Origin: Xanthomonas sp. AM6 | Lineage (GTDB): Bacteria > Pseudomonadota > Gammaproteobacteria > Xanthomonadales > Xanthomonadaceae | Direction of reading: 5' to 3' | Assembly: GCF_025665335.1 (NCBI RefSeq) | Contig: NZ_CP106869.1 | Span: 2,568,501-2,632,500 of the forward strand | Length of the DNA stretch: 64,000 bases | Shown: in pieces, positions 34,369-34,938 of the stretch | Layout of the letters: each line of letters begins with the position of its first letter | How positions within the stretch are numbered: the stretch's first letter is position 1 | Notes under the pieces: generated by a model | Database searches by the model: none | What the model was told of the DNA's origin: nothing | Seen by the model: the letters and a program-made list of their open reading frames with translations, nothing else | Program-made: the position numbers and the translations under genes

Positions 34369-34938
34369 ATGCCACGCTACACCGATCTGAAATCGTCCCT
34401 GCTCGCCTCGCTGCTGTGCCTGCTCGGCTGCGCCGCGGTGATCGCGGTGGCGCAGCTGAGCACCCGCACGGTCGATGCCTCGCGCGATCACCTGCTGCGC
34501 CTGCAGACCCAACAGGCGCCCTCGGCCATGGCATTGCGCGAACTGCGTGCGCATCTGGCGGAACTGCGGCTGTACCAGCTGTCGCTGATCGCCGCGACCG
34601 GCAATGCCGCGGAAGTGGCCGACTACGACCGGCGCATCGCGCAGTCGCTGCGCGGCGCGCGCAAGCAACTGGCGCTGTACAGCGCCACGGCGCCCAGCGG
34701 CGAGGAAGGCCGCCGCTTCGCCCAGGTCCAGGCCGAGCTGGACGCCTACCTGCACTTGCATGGGCAGCTCAGCGCCGCGGTGCATGCCGGCGACCGCGAC
34801 CGCGCCAGCCGGCTGTCCACGCAGCAGGCGCTGCCGCTGCGCCGAGCCCTGTTCGCCGACCTGCTGGAACTGGACCACATCAACGCCCGGCGCGCACTGG
34901 AAGCGGAGGCCGCTGCGCGCACCTACGCCGCGCGCTAG
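34369..34938 (+). CDS. Orphan four-helix-bundle sensor domain (truncated-receptor-like, no signalling domain)
   Basis: The protein has 189 residues: one N-terminal membrane helix (~10-29) followed by a helical domain and then the stop, with no TM2, HAMP or signalling part. The domain is clearly homologous to the periplasmic domain of MCP 10 immediately downstream: LRAHLAELRLYQLSLIAATG here against VRAQLGEFRTYELAQIARAG there, then AAEVADYDRRI against PEAVADYFKRM, and LDAYLHLHGQLSAAVHAGD against LDAYLSSNSQMGDALRAGD. The ribosome site GGGAG sits 6 bases before the ATG at 34369, and a sigma-28 promoter lies upstream, so it looks expressed. It may be a co-receptor or heterodimer partner of MCP 10, or the remnant of a truncated duplicate. 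The frame is intact with the neighbours' codon bias. Confidence 0.75.
   Translation: MPRYTDLKSSLLASLLCLLGCAAVIAVAQLSTRTVDASRDHLLRLQTQQAPSAMALRELRAHLAELRLYQLSLIAATGNAAEVADYDRRIAQSLRGARKQLALYSATAPSGEEGRRFAQVQAELDAYLHLHGQLSAAVHAGDRDRASRLSTQQALPLRRALFADLLELDHINARRALEAEAAARTYAAR

What the first reader, a model, noticed from the sequence alone, without database searches (positions are those of the whole stretch)
34369..34938. A stand-alone sensor domain homologous to the next receptor's periplasmic domain
Seen: an intact 189-codon gene with one membrane helix and a four-helix domain clearly paralogous to that of MCP 10, but no TM2, HAMP or signalling region. It has its own ribosome site and a sigma-28 promoter, in tandem with MCP 10. 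Inference: it could heterodimerise with MCP 10 and act as a dominant-negative subunit, ligand sink or specificity modifier. I know of no described receptor system of this kind. Alternatively it is a decaying duplicate.
Basis: partly seen in the sequence, partly recalled or inferred. Interest (0 to 1): 0.75.

Follow-up and report, generated by a model that had tools for sequence, protein, structure and literature searches.

The report
Sensor-only partner of a chemotaxis receptor
Next to one chemotaxis receptor, these bacteria carry a separate gene for a sensor domain with no signalling parts of its own; the two genes occur side by side in three related genera, which suggests a receptor whose sensing is shared between two proteins.

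Summary
At 34369-34938 lies an intact 189-codon gene for one N-terminal membrane segment plus a four-helix-bundle (4HB) sensor domain, ending where a receptor's second membrane helix would begin. MCP10 follows 59 nt later, then cheR. It is not a decaying duplicate: an intact ortholog in the same place occurs in 10 of 20 genus genomes, at omega 0.215 (neutrality rejected by 117 log units). The same pair, anchored sensor plus MCP10 ortholog 47-67 nt downstream, occurs in two more genera (2 of 35 and 1 of 38 genomes). In 395-genome family draws the anchored sensor was found in 13 genomes, all among the 21 with MCP10. In one of those genera 33 of 35 genomes carry a diverged relative; all 12 that I read in full start with what looks like a signal peptide, so the domain seems also to have become a secreted periplasmic protein. 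All 25 stand-alone domains in the tree fall on one side of a 100/100 branch against 54 receptor domains. Most likely role: an accessory sensor subunit working through MCP10. Heterodimerisation, ligand and sign of effect are inferred, not shown. It works like split receptors (CetA/CetB) and co-component systems (VtrA/VtrC) but belongs to neither.

The parts
34272..34297 (+). sigma-28 (FliA)-type box TCAAG-N14-GTCGATA, 71 nt before the start codon
   Evidence: 2 matches in window against 0.05 expected; present in 10 of 10 sensor-bearing genus genomes (65-75 nt before the ATG), and before MCP10 in 8 of 8 genus genomes with MCP10 but no sensor. Promoter activity not tested; the consensus is recalled.
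34358..34363 (+). likely ribosome-binding site (GGGAGC; GGAG 6 nt before the ATG)
   Evidence: similar stretch in the alignment.
34369..34938 (+). stand-alone sensor gene: 189 codons, one N-terminal membrane segment (about 9-29) and a four-helix-bundle domain (about 34-188); no TM2, HAMP or signalling domain
34939..34997 (+). 59-nt intergenic stretch without a terminator-like site; fits co-transcription (not tested)
   Evidence: 0 terminator-like sites in 34100-35100.
34998..37244 (+). MCP10: 4HB ligand-binding domain, HAMP domains, MCPsignal; the conserved partner gene
   Evidence: 4HB_MCP_1 68.8 bits, MCPsignal 189.8 bits.
37338..38204 (+). cheR, next gene after MCP10 (context; name from recall and homology)
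   Evidence: a cheR match lies downstream of MCP10 in the window and in all 17 fetched genus loci (L036-L052).
31938..34202 (+). MCP9 (sCache receptor), upstream neighbour; not a conserved partner in this genus
   Evidence: no match at this locus in 2 of the 10 sensor-bearing genomes (G017, G001).

Best explanation
It is a receptor accessory subunit. SHOWN by sequence: a 4HB sensor domain with one N-terminal membrane segment and no output part, under purifying selection, encoded just upstream of MCP10 behind a FliA-type box, and found as a pair with MCP10 orthologs in three genera. INFERRED: both are made together in flagellated cells. The sensor sits in the inner membrane by its single helix with its bundle in the periplasm, and acts on the periplasmic bundle of MCP10, most simply by forming the helix-1/helix-1' type dimer that 4HB receptors such as Tar use (recalled), so that a mixed dimer carries one signalling tail. 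The sensor differs from MCP10 at positions that are nearly or fully invariant in MCP10 (W49, T68, S154, R155) while sharing others (E58, R60, E65, Y69, R158, R159). A mixed dimer would therefore have a different or half-complete ligand pocket, changing specificity or sensitivity while MCP10 carries the signal. A docked homodimer of the sensor on MCP10 is the variant I cannot tell apart.
For: Orthologs in place in 10 of 20 genus genomes. Pair in genus g17 (2 of 35) and g16 (1 of 38), with the receptor start 47-67 nt after the sensor stop in all 13 pairs. The partner receptors group with MCP10 at 99/99. All 13 genomes with the anchored sensor are among the 21 with MCP10 in the 395-genome family draws. 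Omega 0.215. FliA-type boxes in all three genera. Fold matches chemoreceptor sensor domains. Residue pattern. Precedent that a mixed Tsr dimer with one binding-defective subunit can bind ligand and signal: PMC4692393, passages read; [quoted passage not shown]
Against: No interaction is measured. MCP10 lives without the sensor in 8 of 18 genus genomes, so it does not depend on it. MCP10's sensor domain shows no rate shift on the branch where the sensor was lost (0.153 of tree length; six other genes or domains 0.066-0.216). Sensor and MCP10 from the same genome are no more alike than from different genomes (26.4% against 26.3%). The secreted relatives in g17 stand next to an sCache receptor, not MCP10. 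Published work shows a 4HB domain that is monomeric with an internal pocket (PMC10390336, passages).
Confidence: 0.5

Rival explanations
1. Independent periplasmic ligand-binding protein: the sensor forms its own homodimer or monomer, binds a ligand, and acts as a buffer or presents the ligand to one or several receptors, much as solute-binding proteins do.
For: 33 of 35 g17 genomes have a related protein; the 12 read in full start with what looks, by eye, like a cleavable signal peptide, so the domain may work without a membrane anchor. It stands beside a different receptor there. A 4HB domain can bind ligand as a monomer (PMC10390336, passages).
Against: The anchored form is followed by MCP10 in 13 of 13 cases, which a general carrier would not need. 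The secreted form has lost several residues that the anchored form shares with MCP10 (R60, E65, Y69, D85), so it may have another job.
Confidence: 0.22
2. Negative subunit: the sensor forms dead mixed dimers with MCP10 and lowers its output, setting receptor gain.
For: No HAMP or signalling domain; one FliA-type box upstream of both genes. A mutant subunit with a dominant-negative defect is expected to spoil a mixed Tsr dimer (PMC4692393, passages).
Against: Lower receptor level would do the same more simply. Conservation runs through all four helices. Mixed Tsr dimers with one binding-site mutant can still signal.
Confidence: 0.15
3. The gene works outside chemotaxis, for example with a sensor kinase, and stays in the cluster only for its promoter.
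For: The fold matches include histidine-kinase sensor domains (4k0d, 3va9, TorS).
Against: In every locus laid out for the three genera it lies inside a che/MCP cluster. Its sequence family is that of MCP sensor domains.
Confidence: 0.08
4. Decaying or selfish duplicate of the MCP10 sensor domain without function.
For: Lost at least twice in the genus: short clean loss in G010, a remnant of the gene's start in 7 group-2 genomes. Higher omega than MCP10 (0.215 against 0.140).
Against: Omega of 1 rejected (log-likelihood -3284.5 against -3167.6). No stop or frameshift in 10 of 10, both indels single codons, same end point. Present in three genera. The tree puts the stand-alone group outside the MCP10 group (100/100).
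Confidence: 0.03

Closest known systems
CetA/CetB bipartite energy-taxis receptor (Campylobacter; CetA2/CetB2 in Magnetospirillum)
   Same: Sensing and signalling parts of one receptor are split over two proteins of co-transcribed genes; the sensor protein has no signalling domain (PMC2628428 and PMC12442639, abstracts and outlines read).
   Different: CetB is a PAS protein peripheral to the membrane, and CetA has membrane helices, HAMP and signalling domain but no PAS. Here the separate sensor is a 4HB domain expected in the periplasm, and MCP10 keeps a complete sensor domain of the same family. [quoted passage not shown] here a FliA-type box stands upstream.
Co-component systems VtrA/VtrC, ToxR/ToxS
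   Same: A periplasmic partner encoded next to a membrane-tethered signalling protein (PMC9214523, abstract and start of the introduction read).
   Different: Output is a DNA-binding domain; VtrC is lipocalin-like, not 4HB; here the two chains are paralogous in their sensor domains; the heterodimer is proven there, only inferred here.
4HB chemoreceptors Tar, Tsr, MCP2201, PcaY_PP, V. cholerae MCP-DRK (VC1313)
   Different: All have TM2, HAMP and a signalling domain in the same chain (recalled for most).
Periplasmic binding proteins that dock on 4HB-type sensors (TorT on TorS, XylFII on LytS)
   Same: A separate extracytoplasmic protein helps a sensor of this fold. The complexes appear by title in the structure search.
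   Different: Those partners are, from general knowledge, of the solute-binding kind. This one is itself a 4HB domain, a paralog of its presumed receptor.

Membership tests
4HB_MCP / TarH sensor domain family (Pfam PF12729, PF02203) | Score above curated cut-off | tested here: met
   45.2 (cut-off 27) and 37.2 (25.2); the G421 (g17) and G545 (g16) anchored relatives are also above both.
4HB_MCP / TarH sensor domain family (Pfam PF12729, PF02203) | Four-helix-bundle fold | tested here: met
   AlphaFold2 model from a 4-row alignment, four helices, pLDDT 82.7; best PDB matches are chemoreceptor sensor domains.
4HB_MCP / TarH sensor domain family (secreted g17 relatives) | Score above curated cut-off | tested here: not met
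   L054:10052-10582, the one tested, gives 0 Pfam families at E 0.01; placed with the stand-alone group by tree and shared residues only.
Methyl-accepting chemotaxis protein (complete chemoreceptor) | MCPsignal domain | tested here: not met
   No match in P0001.
Methyl-accepting chemotaxis protein (complete chemoreceptor) | HAMP domain and second membrane helix | tested here: not met
   No HAMP match; no hydrophobic segment after residue 60.
Bipartite receptor of CetA/CetB kind | PAS sensor protein plus receptor without its own sensor | tested here: not met
   4HB instead of PAS, and MCP10 has its own 4HB domain.
Co-component system (VtrA/VtrC kind) | Tandem genes with a periplasmic partner protein | tested here: met
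   Tandem. Periplasmic place of the domain is inferred from one N-terminal membrane segment.
Co-component system (VtrA/VtrC kind) | Proven heterodimer of the two periplasmic domains | not testable with these tools
   No complex prediction or binding assay available.
Co-component system (VtrA/VtrC kind) | Lipocalin-like partner and DNA-binding output | tested here: not met
   4HB partner, MCP output; so it is not filed here.

The most novel reading that the evidence does not exclude
A two-subunit chemoreceptor in which the periplasmic sensor dimer is made of two paralogous chains from neighbouring genes, only one carrying a signalling tail. The tail-less chain supplies a different half of the ligand site, giving a built-in asymmetric receptor, and in a sister lineage this chain was released as a secreted periplasmic sensor protein.
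Probability: 0.33. Interest if true: 0.82.

Novelty: new variant of a known kind. Interest (0 to 1): 0.64.

Why it matters
Receptors of this kind are generally treated as homodimers, and receptor repertoires are usually counted by the signalling domain (both recalled), so a gene with a sensor domain alone is easily missed. If the stand-alone sensor pairs with MCP10, one receptor gene can give two or more sensing states set by a second gene. It would also be a natural case for testing, with unmodified proteins, whether a dimer with a single signalling tail works. The genus offers MCP10 with and without the sensor (10 and 8 of 18 genomes), a ready comparison. The apparently secreted relatives suggest a sensor domain becoming a free periplasmic protein.

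Tried and rejected
Decay: rejected by omega, frames and spread. Recent MCP10 duplicate: rejected by trees. Lipoprotein: the only lipobox-like cysteine (C21; motif recalled) is missing in 2 of 10 orthologs, and C17, invariant in the 10, does not follow a lipobox. Cleaved signal peptide in the window protein: not excluded (an AVA|Q motif exists), but the segment is as hydrophobic over 19 residues as MCP10's TM1 (2.51 against 2.36). No signal-peptide predictor was at hand; the g17 signal peptides are judged by eye.

Rate test for loss of a co-evolving partner: negative. Same-genome versus other-genome identity: no difference. Mirror-tree r 0.963 is not counted as evidence, since species relatedness alone can give it. 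Mapping Tar/Tsr ligand residues onto MCP10 by sequence: failed; a PDB profile search gave three hits, none a chemoreceptor. The MCP10 sensor-domain model came out poor (single sequence, pLDDT 65.4) and is not used. So the half-site idea rests on position and conservation only.

Wider spread: none of the other 142 genomes of the class draw at E 1e-12. Candidates with short frames, G060 and G478, look like MCP genes with interrupted frames (signalling-domain matches follow) and were not counted as stand-alone. One search's tree had several rows read on the wrong strand or frame and was replaced.

Limits of the counts. In some searches only part of the first-look candidates were scored in many genomes (8 each), so an absence there is softer than, where every candidate was scored. 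each drew 395 family genomes; the listed handles agree, but I did not check that the two draws are identical. Match lists were capped (best first). One search's profile contained one secreted g17 row (L054), which lifts secreted hits; with the anchored-only profile A4 the secreted forms listed score 70-83 bits, like receptor domains, so their kinship rests on the tree and on shared residues D87 and P109 (13 of 13 anchored, 12 of 12 secreted) and H139 (12 of 13, 12 of 12). One search's profile contained the three partner receptors; without them they still rank first, but G420's lead is thin (212.4 against 210.2 bits). The trees carry long branches (secreted stem about 2.2). Anchored forms as one clade are not rejected (AU p 0.188), nor are they the best tree.

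Literature: ten searches in the open-access library; in the titles and abstract openings listed I saw no paper on a sensor-only 4HB partner of a chemoreceptor. Not all ten were aimed at that question, the lists were cut, and subscription papers are not held. The one Xanthomonas receptor survey I looked into (PMC9866238, passages) searched for homologs of 28 known MCPs in citrus- and brassica-associated strains.

Full report
WHAT IS THERE. The window (64 kb of a 4.92-Mb single-contig genome) holds a che/MCP cluster: cheY, cheA, a row of MCP genes, a PilZ protein, cheW, more MCPs, then MCP9 (sCache, 31938-34202), the stand-alone gene (34369-34938), MCP10 (34998-37244) and cheR (37338-38204) (che names by recall and by homology between loci). 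The genus is Xanthomonas: genome G015 of the same genus shares contig length and coordinates with a Xanthomonas bonasiae FX4 record.

CONSERVATION IN THE GENUS. Of the 20 genomes held for the genus, 10 (the window's included) have an intact copy, the other nine 55-84% identical to the window's; 8 have MCP10 without it; 2 (small genomes) showed neither. In all 10 the order is sensor, 50-67 nt, MCP10, cheR; MCP9 is missing at the locus in 2 of the 10. All 10 frames end at about the same place before a would-be TM2; the two gaps in the alignment are single codons. Codon models (GY+F3X4) give omega 0.215 for the sensor, 0.140 for the MCP10 sensor domain, 0.095 for whole MCP10, 0.077 for the MCP9 sensor domain (8 genomes) and 0.112 for the g17 secreted form (11). 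Fixing omega at 1 costs 116.9 log units for the sensor. Counting by Nei-Gojobori gives higher medians (0.44, 0.31, 0.26, 0.17, 0.20), as expected with strong third-position bias. By both measures the sensor is the least constrained of the set.

LOSS. Seven genomes without the gene form one clade (support 100) nested among holders in a concatenated tree (the node joining them to holder G001 has 73, the next, with holder G009, 100). Their region between MCP9 and MCP10 (362-440 nt) keeps the FliA-type box, 273-351 nt before MCP10, and a 16-base stretch like the sensor's ribosome site and start (2 mismatches in 7 of 7; 0 of 2000 mononucleotide shuffles as good for each), followed by about 200-275 nt in which tblastn finds no sensor sequence. 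The eighth, G010, lies among holders, and its leader runs from the sensor's leader straight into that of MCP10. So the gene was most simply present in the ancestor and lost at least twice, while MCP10 and the box stayed. This tells against the idea that MCP10 needs the sensor, and for a modifying rather than essential role.

OTHER GENERA. A profile search of 247 genomes of the family and of all 35 held g17 genomes found short stand-alone relatives. In g17, 33 of 35 have one kind (32 at E 2.6e-48 or better, plus G434 at 5.5e-20); G420 and G211 do not. The 12 that I read in full (11, two of them identical, and G421) start with what looks like a textbook signal peptide (.. PPS[FL]A|APAAP .. or near), and in all 16 loci laid out they lie just upstream of an sCache receptor. 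In the 11 aligned, TCAAG-N14-GCCGATA stands 49-51 nt before the gene in each. Two g17 genomes, G420 and G421, have the anchored kind directly upstream of a receptor beside cheA (62-63 nt); G421 has both kinds. One of 38 g16 genomes, G545, has the anchored kind 47 nt before a receptor whose sensor domain is 56% identical to that of MCP10. TCAAG-N15-GCCGATA precedes all three.

ONE FAMILY, ONE PAIR. In a tree of 79 sensor domains the 25 stand-alone ones are one side of a branch at 100/100, and the three partner receptors join the 18 MCP10 domains at 99/99. Long branches are present and the root is not inferred, so duplication order is not settled; a recent origin from MCP10 within Xanthomonas is excluded by the placement. 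Anchored and secreted forms share D87, P109 and H139, which nearly all MCP10 domains lack. In a family draw of 395 genomes the anchored sensor profile gives 13 genomes at E 2.1e-49 or better, then a gap to 5.8e-36, a receptor. The MCP10 profile, in a draw of the same size and apparently the same genomes, gives 21 genomes at 297 bits or more, then 228. All 13 are among the 21. Relatedness makes these counts non-independent, and in these two calls only eight candidates a genome were scored; the weight lies in the pair recurring in three genera in different gene neighbourhoods (before cheR in Xanthomonas; after cheA in g17; before cheW in g16).

HOW IT MAY WORK. With no output domain, the protein must act through another. 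The gene that follows it every time is MCP10. Both are 4HB domains on a membrane helix, the kind that in Tar and Tsr dimerises with the ligand at the interface. Mixed Tsr dimers with one binding-defective subunit can bind serine and signal through one chain (PMC4692393, passages). The sensor keeps E58, R60, E65, Y69, R158 and R159 with MCP10 but changes W49, T68, S154 and R155, which are nearly or fully invariant in MCP10. I therefore favour a mixed dimer with a changed pocket. This is inference: VC1313's domain is a monomer with an internal site (PMC10390336, passages), and I could not map Tar residues onto MCP10.

WHAT SPEAKS AGAINST. No rate shift in MCP10 where the sensor was lost; no extra likeness of same-genome pairs; the secreted form stands by another receptor; the gene is dispensable on an evolutionary scale. 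The family may thus have more than one mode of action.

COMPARISON. Split receptors exist (CetA/CetB, two abstracts read) and so do tandem periplasmic co-components (VtrA/VtrC). Neither is a paralogous periplasmic sensor added to a complete chemoreceptor. In the listings of ten searches of an open-access library I saw no description of one (calls under Tried and rejected). Verdict: a real, conserved two-gene receptor unit, not described as far as I could search; new variant of a known kind; mechanism open but directly testable.

Noticed in passing
28799-29269: A sigma-28-type box (28799-28824) stands before a small gene with a signal-peptide-like start between cheW and the next MCP; no Pfam match at E 0.01. 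A similar gene sits beside cheW in L055:2004-2387 of another genus. Perhaps a second secreted protein of unknown role in the chemotaxis cluster.
   Followed up: partly
L082-L091, L054, L114, L116-L119: Stand-alone relatives with a signal-peptide-like start (12 read in full) in 33 of 35 genomes of one genus; L054's gives no Pfam hit, so they may well be annotated as hypothetical although they sit in the chemotaxis cluster, under a FliA-type box in the 11 aligned.
   Followed up: yes
MCP9-MCP10 intergenic region in L045, L047-L052: In the seven-genome clade without the sensor this region is 362-440 nt long; it keeps the FliA-type box and a remnant of the lost gene's ribosome site and start codon.
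   Followed up: partly
12579-13343: A Phenol_MetA_deg-family gene stands within the MCP row.
   Followed up: no
27303-28094: A YcgR-like PilZN-PilZ protein gene lies directly before cheW among the MCP genes, which may mean c-di-GMP control of motility from within the cluster.
   Followed up: no
L041 and L043: MCP9 (sCache receptor) is missing from this locus in two sensor-bearing genomes; not checked whether it lies elsewhere.
   Followed up: no
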